Below, in pieces: positions 34,756 to 42,519 of a DNA stretch of 64,000 nt; within the stretch, counting starts at the first letter, position 1; every line of letters starts with the position of its first letter. Position numbers and translations under genes: made by a program. The notes under the pieces were generated by a model. The model was not told the origin of the DNA. It worked only from the letters and a program-made list of their open reading frames with translations, and ran no database searches. The DNA comes from Janibacter sp. DB-40. Its GTDB lineage: Bacteria; Actinomycetota; Actinomycetes; Actinomycetales; Dermatophilaceae. The stretch covers positions 2,604,001 through 2,668,000 of the forward strand of contig NZ_CP120360.1 of NCBI RefSeq assembly GCF_029510815.1, written 5' to 3'.

Positions 34756-34863
34756 AGGACCATTGTGCCGCGCAATCAGTCAGATGGAGAGGGCGAAATC
34801 GGATTCGTCCCTCGTCCCGGACGGCATGCCACAGCAGCGGGGTGTGAAGCCGGCTGACTGACA

Positions 34864-34944
34864 AGCAAGAACGCCCCCGACCGTGTCGAGGGCGTTCCGC
34901 TGAGCCGCCTATCGGAATCGAACCGATGACCCATTCATTACGAG
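34864..34944 (-). other. attL: truncated tRNA-Thr 3' half plus terminator
   Basis: 81 bp identical to attR except at 34869 and 34932. It starts at the first base of the anticodon loop and covers the rest of the tRNA and its terminator. It is the original chromosomal 3' half, cut off from its 5' half by the insertion, so it makes no tRNA. Confidence 0.92.
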
Positions 34945-35780
34945 AGGCGTCACCGCCAATTTTGGCTTTTCGGCAACCGCGAAAACCGCATGAAATCGGG
35001 GTTCTTCAAGTCAGTCGTGCCAAGCGTGGCGACCGTCATGTGCCCAAAGTGTGCCCACGAATCCGACCGTGGAGGGCAGCCGACCCGATAGCGGAGCAGC
35101 CTTGGTCGGAGGGGCGCCGGGTCAAGCGGCCCGCTGTGGCGACGGGGTGGTGCGCAGGTGCGGGAGCACCTTCCGGGACCGATGGTTCGATCTGCCGCTT
35201 GAGGCGGTGGCCCGGAGGCCGGATCGTGTAGCGGCGGGTCGACGGCACGAGGGGGGAGGGCGTCTCGGCACTGGTTCGGGGCGTCTTCGTCTGTGTGGCC
35301 GTCCGCGTGCGGGCGGACGCGAGAACGGCCGCCAGGCCGCATGCGCAGCGGGCGGCCAGCGGCGACGGAGTCGCCGCCTTGAGTCAGTAGAGAAAGTTCT
35401 CACATGGAGCGTGAATTGACGGCGCGAGGACTACTCGTTGTGTTGTAGGTCCCGCGCGATCTGTCAGCAGTGGAGGCCGCTGACCTGGGATGGGCCGGCG
35501 GACGGATGCGCCAGGAGGCGTCCGTGTGCCAAGGCAGAGATCGCGTCCTGACCTGCGGGTTGACCGTTTGAGGTTCGGCTTGAGGGACAGGGCACTCCGT
35601 GTAGCTGTCCGTGACCGCTGAACATCGCCCGAAATGACGCCGCTTGATGTGCGCGAAAGAAACATTTCCCGACTGGGTGGGAGATGCACATTTCGCGAGT
35701 CCGAACGCCCGTTCGCGTACGCGATCTCCCGCCGGCTACTCGAGAACATCCCCGAGATCAGTCAGCGGTGCTACTTCGGG
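34945..35780. other. Left end of the element without a supportable gene
   Basis: 836 bp. Several open frames exist on both strands but none has a ribosome site with a recognisable or compositionally normal product. The segment holds the left 20-bp arm-like repeat (35038-35057). Part of it (about 35390-35780) is markedly lower in GC, like the cargo gene that follows, so a decayed gene or cargo-associated non-coding sequence is possible. Confidence 0.6.
35038..35057 (+). promoter_or_regulatory. Left integrase arm-type site (20-bp repeat)
   Basis: ATGTGCCCAAAGTGTGCCCA, which is itself two TGTGCCCA units three bases apart. An identical copy in the same orientation lies at 40590-40609. The pair is placed about 90 bp inside each att core, as expected for tyrosine-integrase arm sites. 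Confidence 0.65.
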
Positions 35781-37439
35781 CTACCCGAGACTATCCTCAG
35801 CGGCAGGCGCCTCGTCGGCGCCCTCGGCACCGGCGTCGGGCGGAAGAGCCCAGTCCTTCAGGTCGGCGAGGAACTGGAGGCCCTCCTGCAGCAGGACCTG
35901 GATCGCCTCTATGCCGCGGTCGGTGCCTAGGTTTTTCGCGAGCATGGCCTGGTAGTCGCTGCCCTTGAGGTGGGCGGCGACCTTGGACCGGAGCTCCTGG
36001 ACCCTCCGCAGGTAGGCGATATCCCTGGCAACGTGCGGGTAGCCCTCAGCAGTGAGGAAACGCTCGAACTTCGAGATCCCCTTCTCGTCGGGGATCTTCG
36101 TGCCCAAGGCCTTCCCGATGGAGCCTTCGTTCAGAGCGTCGCTCATCAGCTTGGCCAGCACCTTGATCGAGTCCTCGAACTCGTTCTGGCCGTCGTTGAG
36201 CGGGAGCCGAAGTTGCTGGAGGAGATGTACGTCGCTCTCCTTCAGATCCCTGAACAACCGCCAGCCGTACTTTGCCTCCCACGCCTTCGTCGTGTCGCGG
36301 TACGCACGTCGGAAGACTAGGTCAACGACCTTAGGGTTCGTGGCCTGCGCAAGGAACGAGCGGCGGATGTTGGTTTCGCTCATGTGGGCATCTGGCGCGA
36401 TCATGTTCGCTCGCCAGTGGTCTCGTTCCCCTGCCGGCAGGTCGCGGCCGATGTCGCCGAGGAACATCAGGACCCGGTCCGAGTGGTCGTTGTCGATGGC
36501 CACGCCCCAGAGGGAGGCGCAGCGCAGGTAGCCGTCCTCGACTGAATACAGCTCCGGTTTGTCGTAGTACTTCTGGAGGACCTCGCGGCGGAAGTGGACG
36601 GGCGTCAGGTAGTGCGGCGCTTCGGGGTTCTTCCCAAAGTAGTTGGCGAGGAGATCGGGGTCGCACGAGAACTTGATCGGCCTGCCGTGCTCGTCCTCGC
36701 CGATGATGAATTGGGGGTAGTTGTCGTCTTCGTCTTCGTAGGGCCACATACCGCAGGAGGTCACCGGGCCGTGCGCGATCACCTTGGTCGCGAGGTAACG
36801 GCTGCCGTACGGGCCGGATGAGGCCCACCGGTTCTCAAAGAAGTTGAGCAGTCCGCCGACCTTGTCTGTGGCGAACTCTTGCGTCTCGTCCAACGCTGGG
36901 GCGGTGTCTGAGTAGGTTGCGGAGTCCACGAACAACAGTAGGTCCATGCCTCGAGCGGCGAGGTACTGCTTGAGCAAGGAGGTGCGGATCTCGATCTTGC
37001 TGCCTTCGAACCGAACCGCGGGGATTTGGCTCCCGTCATCGTTCATCTTGACGTAGGTGTTCGACGCAGCCTCGAAGCGCAAGTTGTGAAACAGGCGGAA
37101 CTGCTGGTCGATCTCGTACTCGCTGTCTGCGGCGCCGTGGTATTCGCGAACGAGGATCAGCGGCTCGATGTCCTCGTCCAGGGAGCCCTTCGAAAGGTAG
37201 GTGGTGGTCTGCTCGCCGTCCCCCCAGTGCTGAACGAAACCGGGGGCGCCGTCGGTCTTGGTTAGCAGCCATCCGGTTCGGGCCAGCGCCTCTTCGCGGC
37301 GTTCAGGTGACGCGATGGCGCAGTAGATTCCGAGGTTCAGTCCGTTCTCGTAGGTCGAGTCATGGACCGTCGTCCACGGTCCGTCACCTTGCGCCTCGAA
37401 GGTCGCTCGGATCGTTTGCTGCTCAAGCTCGTGGGCCAC
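35781..37439 (-). CDS. Large unrecognised cargo protein with possible C-terminal HEPN-like region
   Basis: 552 aa, no signal peptide or TM helix. I cannot assign a family. Visible features: a long N-terminal alpha/beta region (to about residue 390) with acidic runs (MWPYEDEDDNYPQF), the segment NPEAPHYLTPVHFRREVLQKYYDKPELYSVEDG split here by a GYLRC strand and WGVAIDNDHSDRVLMFLGDIGRDLP; then a helical C-terminus with LRRVQELRSKVAAHLKG, an R-x5-H pattern like the ribonuclease motif of HEPN domains. The tail is Ala/Asp/Glu-rich. GTG at 37439 is preferred over an ATG 18 codons upstream because AGGAG lies eight bases before it. GC is clearly lower than in Rep, Int and the chromosome. As the only cargo of the element it may be a defence gene; this is inference. 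Confidence 0.7.
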   Translation of the reverse strand: MAHELEQQTIRATFEAQGDGPWTTVHDSTYENGLNLGIYCAIASPERREEALARTGWLLTKTDGAPGFVQHWGDGEQTTTYLSKGSLDEDIEPLILVREYHGAADSEYEIDQQFRLFHNLRFEAASNTYVKMNDDGSQIPAVRFEGSKIEIRTSLLKQYLAARGMDLLLFVDSATYSDTAPALDETQEFATDKVGGLLNFFENRWASSGPYGSRYLATKVIAHGPVTSCGMWPYEDEDDNYPQFIIGEDEHGRPIKFSCDPDLLANYFGKNPEAPHYLTPVHFRREVLQKYYDKPELYSVEDGYLRCASLWGVAIDNDHSDRVLMFLGDIGRDLPAGERDHWRANMIAPDAHMSETNIRRSFLAQATNPKVVDLVFRRAYRDTTKAWEAKYGWRLFRDLKESDVHLLQQLRLPLNDGQNEFEDSIKVLAKLMSDALNEGSIGKALGTKIPDEKGISKFERFLTAEGYPHVARDIAYLRRVQELRSKVAAHLKGSDYQAMLAKNLGTDRGIEAIQVLLQEGLQFLADLKDWALPPDAGAEGADEAPAAEDSLG

Positions 37440-37923
37440 TTCTCGGTCTCCTCGGGGACGCCAGATCAAATCGCTCAGCCCTGACCTTTCCATACGACTC
37501 GGGCTTCAGTCCTGCGATCGGCCGCGCGCAGCCCTTGCCTGCAACTCAACCAGCGGACGCTGTCGGGCGGTCTCCTCGGGGTACGTCAGACAATTCTCTG
37601 GTCACGGCGCTCGATTTGCTGGAACAGCCTCATCAAGCACGGCATCGTGGGTGGTGCGGATAGACATAGACGCACATATGGACACCCATTGTCCCGGGGG
37701 TCGGCTCCCCTCTCGGGCCTGACGGCTCGCATCCATCGAAGGCCGCAAAGACTCGTTGACGGGATCCGCACTTGCACCCTCTTTGGGTGTGCCCGGCGTT
37801 GAGCGGCTCTGGAACGTCGGTGACCACGTATCGCCGCTCACCCCACAGTCTGGGTGTGCCGCGCGGATCTCAGAGCCGCACTCCGGTCCGCGTGGCACAC
37901 CCTTCTTTGGTTGGGAGGGGACC
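37440..37923. other. Divergent intergenic region between cargo gene and rep
   Basis: 484 bp with no gene. The right part contains the inverted and direct repeats at 37785-37902; the left part must hold the promoter of the cargo gene and is AT-richer, for example around 37590-37680. A replication origin is expected near rep in this class of element. Confidence 0.6.
37785..37902. repeat. Repeats upstream of rep: inverted pair plus a third GGGTGTGCC
   Basis: A 16-bp inverted repeat (37852-37867 and 37887-37902, one mismatch) starts with GGGTGTGCC, and a third GGGTGTGCC is at 37785-37793. The inverted pair ends about 20 bp before the rep start codon and just before its ribosome site. Candidates: operator for rep control, or double-strand origin for rolling-circle replication. 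Confidence 0.55.
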
Positions 37924-39474
37924 GTGGCCACCACCGACACGCACGCCCCTGCCGCCGGCCAGGACCGCTTCCCCGGCTTCGGTGAGGACGCGCCGCTGGA
38001 CATTCCCGACCTCAATCACCCCGAGAACGCCAAGCTGATCGCCCAGCGGATGCGCGACGGGAGCATGGACAACTTCGCCCAGGCCCTGAACACCACACAC
38101 AACTGCGCCCACCCCGTCCGGCTGGCCGGGTCCTCGGTCACCGTCGACACCACGACCGGCGAGATCGTCTCGACCTTCGACGCCAGTGACCTGCCGTTCG
38201 GGGTGCTCCACCGTCCGTGTGGCAACCGCCGTGCCTCGGTGTGCCCGTCCTGCTCACGCACCTATGCCCGTGACACCTACGCACTGATCCATGCCGGGGT
38301 TGTCGGAGGCAAGAGCGTCCCCGACCAGGTGCGGGACAACCCGCTGCTGTTCGTCACCCTCACCGCCCCCTCGTTTGGGCCGGTCCACGGCCACCGGAGC
38401 GGGAGGGCGTGTCGGCCCCGGCGACGCGACGACCGCACCCGGTGTCCCCACGGACGGCCGTTGTGGTGCACCCGGGTCCACGACCGGGACGACGAGGTCA
38501 ACGGGGCGCCGTTGTGCTTCGAATGCCACGACACGGCGTCGGCGGTGATGTGGCAGTGGCACGCTCCCGAGCTGTGGCGACGCTTCACCATCGCCTTCCG
38601 CCGCGCCGTCGCCCACCACGTGGCCGTGCCCGACTCCCGCCTTGGCGAGGTCGCGTCGATCCAGTACGCCAAGGTCGCCGAGCACCAGGCACGAGGCCTG
38701 ATCCACTTCCACGCCCTGATCCGCCTCGACGGACCCGCCGCCGGCGGCACCGGGTCGCCCGCTCCCCCATCGATCGACGGCGACACCCTCGCCACCCTCG
38801 TCCACCAGGTCGTCCCGACCGTCACGGCCATCGCCGAGCCGGCCGACCACAAGGACACCCCTCGAGTGTTGGCCTTCGGGTCCCAGGTCGACGTGCGTAC
38901 CGTCCGAGCCGGCTCGCGCACCGACGACCCGGCCGGCCCGCTAACCCCCGACCAGGTCGCCGGGTACCTGGCCAAGTACTCCACCAAGGACTCCTCCGGC
39001 CTGCACGGCCGCGGCCAGCAGCGGCCGCACATCCTCGCCCTGCGCCGGCAGTGCCACGAGATGGCTGCCCGGGCCGCGACCTTCCACGATCAGGATCACG
39101 ACTACCAACGCATGGGCAAGTGGGTGCACTGCCTGGGCTTCCGCGGTCACTTCGGCACCAAGTCCCGCTGCTACTCCCTCACCCTCGGCGCCCTGCGTCG
39201 CGCCCGCTCGCGGTGGCAGGCCCTGGCCGCTGAGTCCCGCCGCACCGGGCAACCCCTCGACACCCGCGACCTCGAGGCACGGCTGCTCGCCGACGACGCG
39301 GAAGAGACCACCCAGGTCGTGGGCACCTGGACCTACGTCGGGACCGGCTGGCGCGACCACCTCGAACAAGCCCTCGCCCTGGCGGTCGCCGCCCGCGCCC
39401 GTGAGTACGACCTGTGGAAAGCCGAACGGCGAAAGGCTCGATCTGGGCTAGAGAGAGGAGATGGCGATGCATGA
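37924..39474 (+). CDS. Replication initiator protein (RepSA-like, rolling-circle type)
   Basis: 516 aa. Start at GTG 37924 with a GGGAGGGG site. Cysteine pairs (CGNRRASVCPSCSRTYA, and CPHGRPLWC to CFECHD) form zinc-finger-like elements. GLIHFHALIRLDG matches the HUH metal motif as HFH, and YLAKYSTK contains the candidate nicking Tyr, in the expected order for rolling-circle initiators. This is the architecture of Rep proteins of actinomycete integrative elements such as pSAM2, which replicate the excised circle. GC is near that of the host. Confidence 0.85.
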   Translation: MATTDTHAPAAGQDRFPGFGEDAPLDIPDLNHPENAKLIAQRMRDGSMDNFAQALNTTHNCAHPVRLAGSSVTVDTTTGEIVSTFDASDLPFGVLHRPCGNRRASVCPSCSRTYARDTYALIHAGVVGGKSVPDQVRDNPLLFVTLTAPSFGPVHGHRSGRACRPRRRDDRTRCPHGRPLWCTRVHDRDDEVNGAPLCFECHDTASAVMWQWHAPELWRRFTIAFRRAVAHHVAVPDSRLGEVASIQYAKVAEHQARGLIHFHALIRLDGPAAGGTGSPAPPSIDGDTLATLVHQVVPTVTAIAEPADHKDTPRVLAFGSQVDVRTVRAGSRTDDPAGPLTPDQVAGYLAKYSTKDSSGLHGRGQQRPHILALRRQCHEMAARAATFHDQDHDYQRMGKWVHCLGFRGHFGTKSRCYSLTLGALRRARSRWQALAAESRRTGQPLDTRDLEARLLADDAEETTQVVGTWTYVGTGWRDHLEQALALAVAARAREYDLWKAERRKARSGLERGDGDA

Positions 39475-39502
39475 GCAGGACACGAGTGAGGTGCCGACAT
39501 GA
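39461..39502 (+). CDS. 13-codon stub between rep and int, possible xis remnant
   Basis: ATG with a strong GAGAGAGGAG site directly upstream, 13 codons (MAMHEQDTSEVPT) and a stop that overlaps the integrase start as ATGA. In related elements an excisionase of about 60-80 residues occupies this place. The stub has the signals of such a gene, with no room for a helix-turn-helix. It could be a deletion product, or simply a leader that couples integrase translation. Confidence 0.4.
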   Translation: MAMHEQDTSEVPT

Positions 39503-40572
39503 TCGAGCGTCGAGTCCTGGACTCGGGGCGGGTGCGTTGGCGGGTTCGGTACCGGACACCGGAGCACCGCCAGCGGTCCCGGACGTTCGACCGGCGTGCG
39601 GATGCCGAGGCCTTCGAGGACGAGCTGCGTGGTCGGATGCGCCGTGGGGAGTTCGTCGACCCTCGACGTGGACTGGTGACGCTATCGGCCCTGTGGTCGC
39701 AGTACGAGCAGGGCGGGATGACCCACCTACGTGTGACGACGCAGCAGAACTACCGCATGGCGTTCCGTCACGTGCTGAACCACTTCGGCACGTGGCCGGT
39801 CGCGAAGATCGAGCACGCCGACATCGCCGAGTGGGTGACCTCGCTCGGAAAGACCAAGGGCCCGGAGACCGTGCGCTACGCCCACCGAGTCTTCTGCCTC
39901 GTCCTCGACTTCGGCATGCGGACCCGGCGCCTGAGCCACAACGTCGCTCGGGGCGTGCGGTTGCCAGCGAGGCCACCATCGCGCGAGCGGATTCTGACCA
40001 TGGCCCAGGTCGAGGCCCTCGCGGCACGCCTCGGTCGTGAGGGCGACCTCGTGCTGGCGATGGCCCTGCTCGGTCTGCGGTGGTCGGAGCTGGCCGCCCT
40101 CAAGGTCTCGGACGTCGACCTCGAGCGGGGCCAGGTCCGGGTGGTCGAGCGAGCCACCGAAGTCGGCGGTCGGATGGATGTCTCTGCACCGAAGTCGCGG
40201 GCCTCTGCGCGCTCGATCGGCATCCCGCCCTCGATGCGGGAGGTGCCCGAGGCCAGGACCGCGGGTCGGTCTGCCGATGCGTTGATCTTCCCGGCTCCGG
40301 ACGGTGGCTACCTGCGCAACGGCAACTGGCGACACCGGTCAGGGTGGAGTGCCGCGCTGAAGGCAACGGGGCTCGACGGGGTGACGCCGCAAGACCTGCG
40401 ACGCACCTTCGGCAGCTTGGCGAGGAAGGCCGGCGCGGACCTCCGCTACATCCAACGGGCGATGGGCCACGAGTCGATCACCACCACGGCGCGAATCTAC
40501 GCGCACCTCTACGACGACGAGCTGGACGAGATCGCGGCAGCGCTGGATGGCCTGCGGGGAGCCCAGCCATGA
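39499..40572 (+). CDS. int: Tyrosine recombinase (integrase)
   Basis: 357 aa. N-terminal arm-binding domain, core-binding domain (about residues 60-150) and catalytic domain. Catalytic residues: Arg in GLRWSELAAL, box II as TPQDLRRTFGS where the usual first His of HxxR is Gln, the later His in MGHESITTT, and the nucleophile Tyr in RIYAHLYDDE. A Gln at the first box II position occurs in some active integrases but may reduce activity. The stop lies about 120 bp from the attR core, the usual int-att spacing. Confidence 0.93.
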   Translation: MIERRVLDSGRVRWRVRYRTPEHRQRSRTFDRRADAEAFEDELRGRMRRGEFVDPRRGLVTLSALWSQYEQGGMTHLRVTTQQNYRMAFRHVLNHFGTWPVAKIEHADIAEWVTSLGKTKGPETVRYAHRVFCLVLDFGMRTRRLSHNVARGVRLPARPPSRERILTMAQVEALAARLGREGDLVLAMALLGLRWSELAALKVSDVDLERGQVRVVERATEVGGRMDVSAPKSRASARSIGIPPSMREVPEARTAGRSADALIFPAPDGGYLRNGNWRHRSGWSAALKATGLDGVTPQDLRRTFGSLARKAGADLRYIQRAMGHESITTTARIYAHLYDDELDEIAAALDGLRGAQP

Positions 40573-40589
40573 GCCCCCTTCGCCACCTG

Positions 40590-40609
40590 ATGTGCCCAAA
40601 GTGTGCCCA
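40590..40609 (+). promoter_or_regulatory. Right integrase arm-type site (20-bp repeat)
   Basis: Exact copy, same orientation, of the 20 bp at 35038-35057. It lies between the int stop and attR. Confidence 0.65.
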
Positions 40610-40692
40610 TTTCGGCCCCGCCGACCTGCTCTTGGCGGCACTTGCTGGTCTGGTCGCCGTCCTTGCCGGCTCGACGAAAACCGCCTCTGATC

Positions 40693-40773
40693 AGCAAAAA
40701 CGCCCCCGACCGTGTCGAGGGCGTTCCGCTGAGCCGCCTATCGGAATCGAACCGATGACCTATTCATTACGAG
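40693..40773 (-). other. attR: element-borne tRNA-Thr 3' half plus terminator
   Basis: 81-bp copy of attL. It completes the tRNA-Thr gene whose 5' part lies to the right, so the insertion does not destroy the tRNA. The two differences from attL affect the variable loop region and the U-tract of the terminator. Confidence 0.92.
40695..40725 (-). terminator. Rho-independent terminator of tRNA-Thr
   Basis: Stem of 11 pairs with one T-G, loop of three, then TTTTT on the minus strand, starting 7 bases after the tRNA. The copy in attL has an interrupted run (TTCTT). Confidence 0.9.
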
Positions 40774-40805
40774 TGAATCGCTCTAGCCGACTGAGCTAAG
40801 GCGGC
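40732..40805 (-). tRNA. tRNA-Thr (anticodon CGT)
   Basis: 74 nt. The acceptor stem pairs GCCGCCT with AGGCGGC, the discriminator is T, the D arm is GCTC/GAGC, the anticodon stem is ATTCA/TGAAT with loop CTCGTAA, and the T arm is ATCGG-TTCGATT-CCGAT. CCA is not encoded. Its 3' part from the anticodon loop onward belongs to the integrated element. Confidence 0.96.
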
Positions 40806-40890: not shown

Positions 40891-42519
40891 TCACCCCAGA
40901 TGGTGCCGGTGGGCGAAGGCCGCCGCCTCCGTGCGGGACCCGACATCGAGCTTGGTGAAGATGTTGGACAGGTGCCGGGCGACCGTCTTGATCGACAGGT
41001 GCAGCTCCTCGGCGATCTGGGCGTTGCTCATGCCGACGGTCACGAGGCGCAGCACCTCGACCTCTCTGCCGGTGAGTCCACCGGGCCGGTCCGCCTCACC
41101 GAGCTGGTCGGCGACACCACGGGCGTCGGGGACCGCCCCCTGCGTCACGAATGCCTCCCGGGCGGCCTCCAGCTCGAGCACCGCGCCGTCCTCATCACCC
41201 AGCAGGCGCAGCGCCCGCCCCACGAGCACCCGAACTCGTGCCGCCTCGTAGTCCGCGTCGATGACCGACCACCGGGCCAGCGCCGACCTCGCCATCGGCA
41301 GCGCGGACTCGGGATCGTCGCGGGCCAGGGCCACCTGCGCGGCCACGGTCTCGGACGAGGCGCGCACGGCCGCGCACCCGAAGTCCTCGGCGATCCCCGC
41401 AAGTTCGTCGGACAGGACGTCCGACTCGTCGATGAGATCACCCGCCAGGAGCACCTCGACGCAGCCCGGGATGACCCGATGACGGAAGATCGCACCGTGG
41501 GTCCCGGCGAGGGTTCGTCGGGCGGCAGCAACGGCCTGATCGAGGTCACCCCGGTCCCGCGACAACAGGGCCCGTCCGGGCTGCGCGTCGCTGCCGTGTT
41601 GCAGCGCCTGACCGTATGCCCGGTCCGCGCCGTCGAGGTCCCCGAGCAGGCGGAGGACGTCGCCGCGCTCGTGGTGGGCGAGGGCGATGGCCGGATGGCC
41701 GCCGGCCGCCTCGTACCTCGCCGCGGACCGCTCCAACTCGGTCACCGCGTCCTGTAGCGAGCCGTGCAGCCGCATCAGCTGCGCCCGGTGCACCGCGCAC
41801 TGGCCGGTGAAGGCCACGATTGTGGGCTGGGCGTCGCACCACTGCGACAGGGCACGCGTCCACTGCGCCGCCCTGCCCAGGTCACCGACCCACTGGCAGG
41901 CCTCGATCATCGAGCAGTAGACCTCGCCGGCCACGAGTGGGTCGACCTCGCCCGCGACCACCCCGACCATGGCCTCGTCCAGCAGCCGCAGCCCCGCGGG
42001 GACCTGCCCGAAGACCGTCAGCACACGCCCTTCCTGGTTGAGCCCGAGCGCCACGAGGTTGGGGTCGGCGTGGCGTCGCCCGCACGCCGTGATCTGCGCC
42101 GGCAGCGGGCGGGCCCCCTCCAGGTCACCGACGCTCACCCGCTCCAGCATCCGCCCGACGAGCAGGTACCCCCGCTCCACGACGTCACCGTCGACCTCCT
42201 CGAGCACGCGCTCCCCGCGGGCCAGCCAGCCGCCGGCGACGGCGCTCTCCCCCCTCAGTGCCAGCAGTATCCCGAGCCGCGCGGCCGCACGGGCCGCGAG
42301 CAGGGGGTCCGTCGCGTCGAGGGCGGCGTGGTGGGCCCGTTGCAGTGCCTGCACCGCGTCGTCCGGACGGCCGAGCAGCTCGGCCGCGTCGGCCAGGGAC
42401 AGGAAGTCCGTGGCCGCGAGAACCGCGTCGTCGAGGTCCGACAGGGTGCGGTAGGCCGCGAGCCACTCACGGCGCTCGTACGCTTCGCGCGCCCGGTGCA
42501 GATCCTCGACCACGCCCAT
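40891..42519 (-). CDS. LuxR-family regulator with TPR-like repeats
   Basis: 542 aa. The first 450 residues are helical pairs typical of TPR/MalT-like sensor arms; there is no clear P-loop at the N-terminus, so it is not a full LAL-type ATPase. The C-terminus [52 protein letters not shown] is a textbook LuxR helix-turn-helix. The flavin monooxygenase gene lies 60 bp upstream on the same strand and could be a target or operon partner. Confidence 0.9.

What the first reader, a model, noticed from the sequence alone, without database searches (positions are those of the whole stretch)
35781..37439. Single-gene cargo of an integrative element, unrecognised, possibly a defence protein
Seen: a 552-aa protein with no motif I can assign, lower GC than the element and the chromosome, its own AGGAG-GTG start, and a helical C-terminus with R-x5-H (LRSKVAAH). 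Known: small integrative elements often carry one defence gene opposite rep-int, and HEPN ribonuclease domains use an R-x4-6-H motif. Inference: a one-gene abortive-infection or nuclease system acquired separately from the element backbone.
Basis: partly seen in the sequence, partly recalled or inferred. Interest (0 to 1): 0.8.

Follow-up and report, generated by a model that had tools for sequence, protein, structure and literature searches.

The report
Candidate single-gene defence on mobile element
A small mobile DNA element in an actinobacterium carries one extra gene whose relatives across bacteria and archaea often sit on other mobile elements or near antivirus systems, and which probably makes an RNA-cutting protein that shuts down a virus-infected cell.

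Summary
Window 35781-37439 (minus) is a 552-aa gene, the only cargo gene called in a 5.8-kb element bounded by 87-nt direct repeats at tRNA-Thr(CGT), with a RepSA-like gene and an integrase and no transfer gene found. Two same-genus genomes carry the same backbone at that tRNA with other DNA (15.3 and 11.4 kb) in exactly this slot (35404-37557).

The protein belongs to a rare, patchy family in about a dozen phyla plus archaea, without convincing match in Pfam, NCBIfam, PADLOC or PDB. Some members adjoin tRNA genes, type I restriction genes or gamma-mobile-trio genes; in E. coli one occupies a P2-like prophage slot that elsewhere holds a DUF262+HEPN pair (PD-T4-2/NsnA-like).

Best reading: a single-protein abortive-infection factor, with an undescribed N-terminal sensor and a C-terminal HEPN-type RNase. 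HEPN rests on motif anatomy; profile tests lacked power and structure prediction was off. Anti-phage activity is untested; sister cargo includes copper genes, and some subgroups keep the same neighbours.

The parts
35781..37439 (-). cargo gene, 552 aa (P0001): N-terminal domain of unknown fold about residues 1-390, C-terminal helix-prone domain about 395-535 with R484-x5-H490
35970..35990 (-). codons R484 to H490 (predicted HEPN-type active site)
   Evidence: position computed from the GTG at 37439; both residues kept in 59 of 59 relatives that reach the motif
35404..37557 (.). exchangeable cargo slot (2,154 nt); in two same-genus elements other DNA lies between the same backbone ends
34858..34944 (+). 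left attachment repeat (87 nt)
40687..40773 (+). right attachment repeat (87 nt), covers the 3' end of tRNA-Thr
40731..40805 (-). tRNA-Thr (CGT), the integration target
37756..39474 (+). RepSA-like replication initiator (start may be 37924)
   Evidence: NF041486 E 1.1e-92, 311 bits, below its curated cut-off of 700
39499..40572 (+). tyrosine integrase
   Evidence: related to XerC/XerD-type models, all below their curated cut-offs
35038..35057 (+). 20-nt repeat, left copy, 93 nt inside the left attachment repeat; candidate integrase arm site (inference)
40590..40609 (+). 20-nt repeat, right copy, 77 nt inside the right attachment repeat; candidate integrase arm site (inference)

Best explanation
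The gene is the swappable cargo of a small tRNA-Thr integrative element and encodes a single-protein anti-phage factor of the abortive-infection type. Shown: the element and its slot, the protein family, the invariant R-x4-6-H with an invariantly acidic column about 50 residues upstream, a helix-prone C-terminus, and mobile or defence-linked contexts for a part of the relatives. Inferred: the C-terminal ~140 residues are a HEPN-type metal-independent RNase; the ~390-residue N-terminal domain, with its own conserved block (consensus ANYFGxNPxAPHYLTPVFF ... LW...IDN....V.VFLGDLGRDLP..EQ.YW), senses a phage product or a disturbed host process and keeps the RNase silent until infection; the released RNase cuts RNA (tRNA or rRNA most likely), stops translation and ends the infection together with the cell. 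Where it sits in a type I restriction operon (L054) it may instead be held silent by the restriction enzyme, as the anticodon nuclease PrrC is.
For: Motif: R484 and H490 in 59 of 59 members that reach the motif (61 aligned); spacer 5 in 53, 4 in 5, 6 in 1; column 434 is D or E in 59 of 59, and helix-prone stretches surround the motif. PMC3710099 gives R-x4-6-H, a polar residue after R and an upstream acidic residue as HEPN features (passages). Context: in E. coli one gene, opposite in strand to its phage neighbours, inside a P2-like prophage between baseplate gene V and the virion morphogenesis gene; the same slot in another E. coli holds a HEPN and a DUF262 gene, the DUF262 protein hitting NsnA at 6.6e-80 and PD-T4-2_A at 9.5e-43, and 21 of the 40 listed rows are annotated so; PD-T4-2 defends its native strain against T4 (PMC9519451, passage). 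Type I restriction genes in 9 of 64 loci, directly adjacent in five (L030, L047, L050, L054, L061); L054 reads hsdM-hsdS-family gene (4-nt overlap)-small gene-hsdR. Gamma-mobile-trio genes in 2 of 70 loci. A tRNA gene within 1 kb in 10 of 50 loci scanned, null mean 2.8, 0 of 5000 random placements. Patchy: 5 of 297 genomes of the order and 6 of 396 of the phylum, own genome counted in both and some matches partial, and 11 of 5426 E. coli genomes. PrrC is regulated by a restriction protein (abstract start of PMC3874168).
Against: No member matches a HEPN model or any other model convincingly (best stray hits E 0.003-0.01), and hhalign against two HEPN families is not significant, although these two did not find each other either. 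The residue after R is S in 56 of 59, where HEPN mostly has N, D or H. The smoothed helix propensity shows no break at the motif, which in HEPN lies at the end of helix 3. Sister elements hold copper and metabolic cargo in the slot. Several loci lie beside housekeeping genes, and some subgroups share neighbours. The copy beside Cas3 and Cse1 (L079) carries stops. No infection data exist.
Confidence: 0.6

Rival explanations
1. The protein is an anti-phage (or anti-plasmid) factor, but the C-terminal R-H pair is not a HEPN RNase: it is a binding or structural site, and the N-terminal domain does the catalysis (for example a nuclease or nucleotide-modifying domain of new fold).
For: The N-terminal part has its own near-invariant residues (F283, V287, Y291 in 61 of 61; D329 in 60, D316 in 58, N317 in 57, R360 in 56); no HEPN model matches.
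Against: R484 and H490 are the only charged residues identical in every member that reaches them, with the 4-6 spacer that HEPN shows, and column 434 is always acidic.
Confidence: 0.18
2. A stability (addiction-like) or self-regulation factor of the mobile element: it keeps the element in the cell or controls its copy number, and has nothing to do with phages.
For: It is the only cargo of an element with a replication gene and lies beside that gene.
Against: Homologues sit in quite different carriers (P2-like prophage, gamma-mobile-trio island, restriction operon), and the sister elements with the same rep-int half have other DNA in its place; no small partner gene was called beside it.
Confidence: 0.12
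3. A metabolic or stress enzyme picked up as ordinary cargo, like the copper and dehydrogenase genes of the sister elements.
For: Much of the cargo of the two sister elements looks of that kind (by eye).
Against: No enzyme family matches in Pfam, NCBIfam or PDB; presence in about 1.5% of genomes of the order and phylum and closeness to restriction genes in 9 of 64 loci.
Confidence: 0.07

Closest known systems
HEPN RNase effectors of abortive-infection and restriction-linked systems (PrrC, RloC; superfamily paper PMC3710099, passages read; ApeA recalled)
   Same: R-x4-6-H in a helix-prone C-terminal domain, acidic residue upstream, occurrence beside type I restriction genes and on mobile elements
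   Different: no sequence match to any HEPN family tested; N-terminal domain matches nothing, and is neither the ATPase of PrrC/RloC nor the ApeA N-terminus (both recalled); S follows the R in 56 of 59 members
PD-T4-2 / NsnA (PADLOC names; PD-T4-2 in PMC9519451, passages read), here a DUF262+HEPN pair
   Same: occupies the same P2-like prophage slot as the E. coli family member and includes a protein annotated as HEPN
   Different: two genes; the DUF262 protein carries the PADLOC match; no homology to the family was seen
DUF4238 single-protein defence of P2-like phages (PMC9122126, passages read)
   Same: single protein in a P2-like prophage; annotated DUF4238 genes lie next to a family member in L007 and to a fragment in L009
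   Different: another protein family and another prophage locus
Actinomycete integrative elements of the pSAM2 kind (name recalled)
   Same: tyrosine integrase, RepSA-like initiator, tRNA attachment site
   Different: no transfer gene found, and no excisionase gene between rep and int

Membership tests
HEPN superfamily | conserved R-x4-6-H motif | tested here: met
   59 of 59 members that reach the motif; spacers 5 (53), 4 (5), 6 (1)
HEPN superfamily | polar residue right after R | tested here: met
   S 56, N 1, Q 1, G 1 of 59; HEPN has mostly N, D or H (passage), so met in kind, not in letter
HEPN superfamily | conserved acidic residue upstream (helix 2), often Ex3[KR] | tested here: inconclusive
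   column 434 D 53, E 6 of 59; the Ex3[KR] pattern itself is not clear
HEPN superfamily | helical fold with the motif at the end of helix 3 | tested here: inconclusive
HEPN superfamily | significant profile match to a HEPN family | tested here: inconclusive
   no HEPN model in the Pfam scans (one search listed 25 of 36 families); hhalign against two HEPN families not significant, but the HEPN-HEPN control failed too
HEPN superfamily | RNase activity dependent on R and H | not testable with these tools
   needs an assay
Known PADLOC defence systems | match to a PADLOC-DB 2.0.0 model | tested here: not met
   window protein and E. coli member none; among 50 members three single stray hits, best E 0.0048
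ApeA | HEPN_Apea domain (PF18739) | tested here: not met
   not among the matches of 50 members at E up to 1; hhalign against a 3-row HEPN_Apea alignment not significant
Self-transmissible actinomycete integrative element | integrase plus tRNA attachment repeats | tested here: met
Self-transmissible actinomycete integrative element | RepSA-type initiator | tested here: met
   NF041486 1.1e-92 but under the curated cut-off
Self-transmissible actinomycete integrative element | FtsK/SpoIIIE-like transfer gene (feature recalled) | tested here: not met
   three genes called between the repeats; the remaining ORFs there are short and uncalled; no family search was run for a transfer gene

The most novel reading that the evidence does not exclude
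An undescribed immune-protein family, spread over bacteria and archaea, in which one polypeptide joins a new sensor domain to a HEPN RNase; it travels alone on integrative elements and prophages and, in some genomes, is built into type I restriction operons as a guard that fires when restriction is disabled.
Probability: 0.35. Interest if true: 0.75.

Novelty: new variant of a known kind. Interest (0 to 1): 0.58.

Why it matters
If right, this adds a defence family that the annotation libraries searched here miss, with an N-terminal domain that matches nothing found and so may detect phages in a way not yet described. It also gives a clean natural comparison: one element backbone at one tRNA gene with three different cargoes in one genus. 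The E. coli prophage member makes it testable in standard phage assays.

Tried and rejected
Family libraries (Pfam, NCBIfam, PADLOC) and PDB, by sequence or profile, gave nothing convincing for the window protein, for 50 relatives, or for 53 C-terminal domains. Stray hits were set aside because each came from one to three of 50-53 members: AbiEii 0.0048, PglZ 0.0078, BrxB 0.021, a PRK03057 model 0.013, TRIM_CC 0.0032, Neil1-DNA_bind 0.077, and PDB chains at 0.096 or worse. hhalign against HEPN_RiboL-PSP (5 rows) and HEPN_Apea (3 rows) was not significant, and HEPN against HEPN failed as well, so it decides nothing. That the slot is a pure defence slot was rejected after reading the sister cargo. 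That the family is phage-borne in general was rejected: no match in 50,697 phage records, none in IMG/VR with the window protein and 1 locus with the family alignment. A partner gene was looked for: the clearest recurrent one is a 228-aa gene downstream in four related loci, so no partner is required in general. Direct repeats in the tRNA-linked relatives L022, L034, L053, L061, L064, L032 and L043 showed no attachment-site pair; the L064 repeats are tRNA-like copies. The PADLOC and Pfam neighbour scans give tallies of the first 25 families only, so I claim no percentage of defence neighbours from them.

Rows left out of counts: of 64 genome loci, 9 (L024, L049, L055, L074, L076, L079-L082) were left out of the 61-row alignment as broken, cut or near-duplicate; six rows came from elsewhere (window, L002, L006, L007, L008, L010). 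The tree used 58 of the 61 (L035, L051, L073 left out). tRNAs were scanned in 50 of 64 loci. The neighbour scans took 207 proteins (two genes each side, 90 aa or more) from 70 loci after dropping six loci (L009, L047, L055, L080, L081, L082) and proteins with stops. The gene caller missed the family gene in some loci, so its coordinates were set from the matches.

Full report
What is there. The gene at 35781-37439 (minus) encodes 552 aa; the codon-usage caller keeps the same gene with the GTG start. It lies in a 5.8-kb element bounded by 87-nt direct repeats, 34858-34944 and 40687-40773, the latter covering the 3' end of tRNA-Thr(CGT). Besides the cargo the element has a RepSA-like initiator and a tyrosine integrase; no further gene was called, and the other ORFs are short. 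A 20-nt sequence is repeated near both ends, at 35038 and 40590, and again, with at most one change, near both ends of the two sister elements; it may be an integrase arm site (inference).

The cargo is exchangeable. Of 16 genomes of the genus (own included) searched with the right flank, G782 and G778 have a second copy of the attachment site 19 and 15 kb away. Their elements share the window's left end (34945-35403, 87-88% identity) and rep-int half (37558-40686, about 92%), but between these ends they hold 15.3 kb and 11.4 kb of other DNA instead of the window's 2.15 kb. In G782 parts of both chromosomal flanks are shared too (92% and 90%), so backbone and chromosome have diverged about equally: the backbone may have been resident and the cargo swapped (inference); in G778 only the attachment site and 186 nt of right flank match. 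The sister cargoes look by eye like a multicopper oxidase, cation efflux, two-component and UvrA-like genes plus two HEPN-like ORFs (G782), and insertion sequences, a dehydrogenase and a LysR regulator (G778). Two relatives of the family level at tRNA-Thr(CGT), G741 and G700, have related int and rep with a 67-69 aa putative excisionase (by eye) between them, which the window lacks; G700 has 98-nt attachment repeats, G741 showed none.

The family. A scan of 84,980 species genomes with one conserved pattern gave 64 loci in Actinomycetota, Chloroflexota, Thermomicrobiota, Cyanobacteriota, Planctomycetota, Acidobacteriota, Pseudomonadota, Bacillota, Patescibacteria/Saccharibacteria, Spirochaetota, Verrucomicrobiota, Deferribacterota and the archaeon Methanosaeta (phylum names from the record titles). 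The single pattern makes prevalence a lower bound, and many records are metagenome bins, whose assignment can be wrong. Direct searches find it in 5 of 297 genomes of the order and 6 of 396 of the phylum, own genome counted in both and some matches partial, and in 11 of 5426 E. coli genomes. The tree of 58 members mixes phyla: two cyanobacteria inside proteobacteria, a saccharibacterium beside Actinomyces, a methanogen beside planctomycetes, with support of at least 95/80 at these joins (the places of the long branches L007, L008, L010, L061, L072, L083 are unsure). This points to horizontal spread, with misbinned contigs as a caveat.

Protein anatomy. In 61 aligned members R484 and H490 are kept in all 59 that reach the motif (2 end before or within it); the spacer is 5 (53), 4 (5) or 6 (1) residues. 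They are the only invariant charged residues in three alignments; F283, V287 and Y291 are equally invariant. Column 434 is D or E in all 59. Helix propensity averaged over the alignment gives long helix-prone stretches 418-443, 454-464, 473-504 and 512-531, with the motif inside the third and no break there (a crude measure without control); the helix-prone fraction is 0.66 for 395-535 and 0.33 for 1-390. PMC3710099 (passages read) places R-x4-6-H at the end of helix 3, with a polar residue after R and an acidic residue in helix 2. The anatomy fits broadly; formal homology is not shown, and the tests had little power.

Context. In E. coli the gene is a single, oppositely oriented gene in a P2-like prophage (two records opened). 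Of 51 genomes with a match to this stretch, 11 have the gene; of the 40 rows listed, 9 have it, 21 are annotated with DUF262 and HEPN genes, 3 with another hypothetical gene, and 7 match on one flank only. I opened six without it: the slot held DUF262+HEPN once and single proteins of 309 (twice), 398, 328 and 597 aa. The DUF262 protein hits NsnA and PD-T4-2_A; its HEPN partner and the four kinds of single protein have no PADLOC match. One P2 defence hotspot in print lies elsewhere, between the replication and portal genes (PMC9122126); for the second, at the gene fun (PMC9519451), the passages seen do not give the position.

Type I restriction genes occur in 9 of 64 loci: L030, L031, L039, L047, L050, L054, L061, L063, L076 (five directly adjacent, the others 2 to 7 kb off; gene names from sequence similarity among the loci and from the tallies). 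The HsdM rate is 6 in 0.87 Mb, against 70 HsdM_N matches in 149 actinobacterial genomes, about 0.15 per Mb if the mean genome is near 3 Mb (my estimate); the two counts were made by different methods and other phyla may run higher. In L054 the gene overlaps the hsdS end by 4 nt, and hsdR follows one gene later; in the archaeal L047 an HsdR-like frame begins 6 nt after the gene. L079 lies within 3 kb of Cas3 and Cse1, but its own copy carries stops. L006 and L059 follow gmtX in gamma-mobile-trio islands, an element that PMC12715929 calls rich in anti-phage systems (passage). L007, and a fragment in L009, lie beside annotated DUF4238 genes; a DUF4238 protein alone gave strong resistance to T7 (PMC9122126, passage). 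tRNA genes lie within 1 kb in 10 of 50 loci. Against this, several loci stand beside housekeeping genes, and two subgroups keep a neighbour: one gene directly upstream in L067, L071, L074, L076 and L081, and a DnaB-like gene in three actinobacterial genomes.

How it works and how sure. Mobile accessory gene with a defence association: about 0.9. HEPN-type RNase at the C-terminus: about 0.65. Abortive-infection defence: about 0.6. The single-gene setting and the long N-terminal domain suggest sensor and effector in one chain. The target RNA and the trigger are unknown.

Novelty. I found no description of the family. Searches for five homologue accessions and one locus tag gave no paper, and topic searches did not show one; of those listings only titles and abstract starts were seen, apart from the passages cited. 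PADLOC-DB is of 2023 and newer catalogues were not available, so a name given elsewhere is possible.

Noticed in passing
L143:1880-3494, L144:1978-2907, L145:1858-3054, L147:2685-3671, L148:1742-3535: The slot between baseplate gene V and the virion morphogenesis gene of E. coli P2-like prophages held different cargo in the six records opened; four kinds of single protein there have no PADLOC match and are candidate defence genes.
   Followed up: partly
L137:6530-6943, L136:10866-11894: The 15-kb cargo of the sister element in G782 contains two further ORFs with RN-x3-H motifs (LRNAVVH, LRNALVH), HEPN-like by eye, without PADLOC match.
   Followed up: partly
window 39474-39499: No excisionase gene between rep and int, while related elements L120 and L121 have a 67-69 aa HTH-like gene there (by eye); the window element may need another way out.
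   Followed up: partly
L063, L067, L074, L076 (gene directly downstream): A 228-aa gene, 75-95% identical to the L067 copy, follows the family gene in these four loci and may be a local partner.
   Followed up: no
L024, L055, L076, L079: These copies of the family gene are interrupted by in-frame stops within the matched stretch; decay of the gene is not rare.
   Followed up: no
window 41213-41301: ARAGORN reports a tRNA of unclear type with a four-base anticodon inside the called gene 40891-42519; probably false.
   Followed up: no
L011:8417-12571: A Moraxella plasmid fragment of the family is followed by a 1384-aa P-loop protein, possibly another defence gene (by eye).
   Followed up: no
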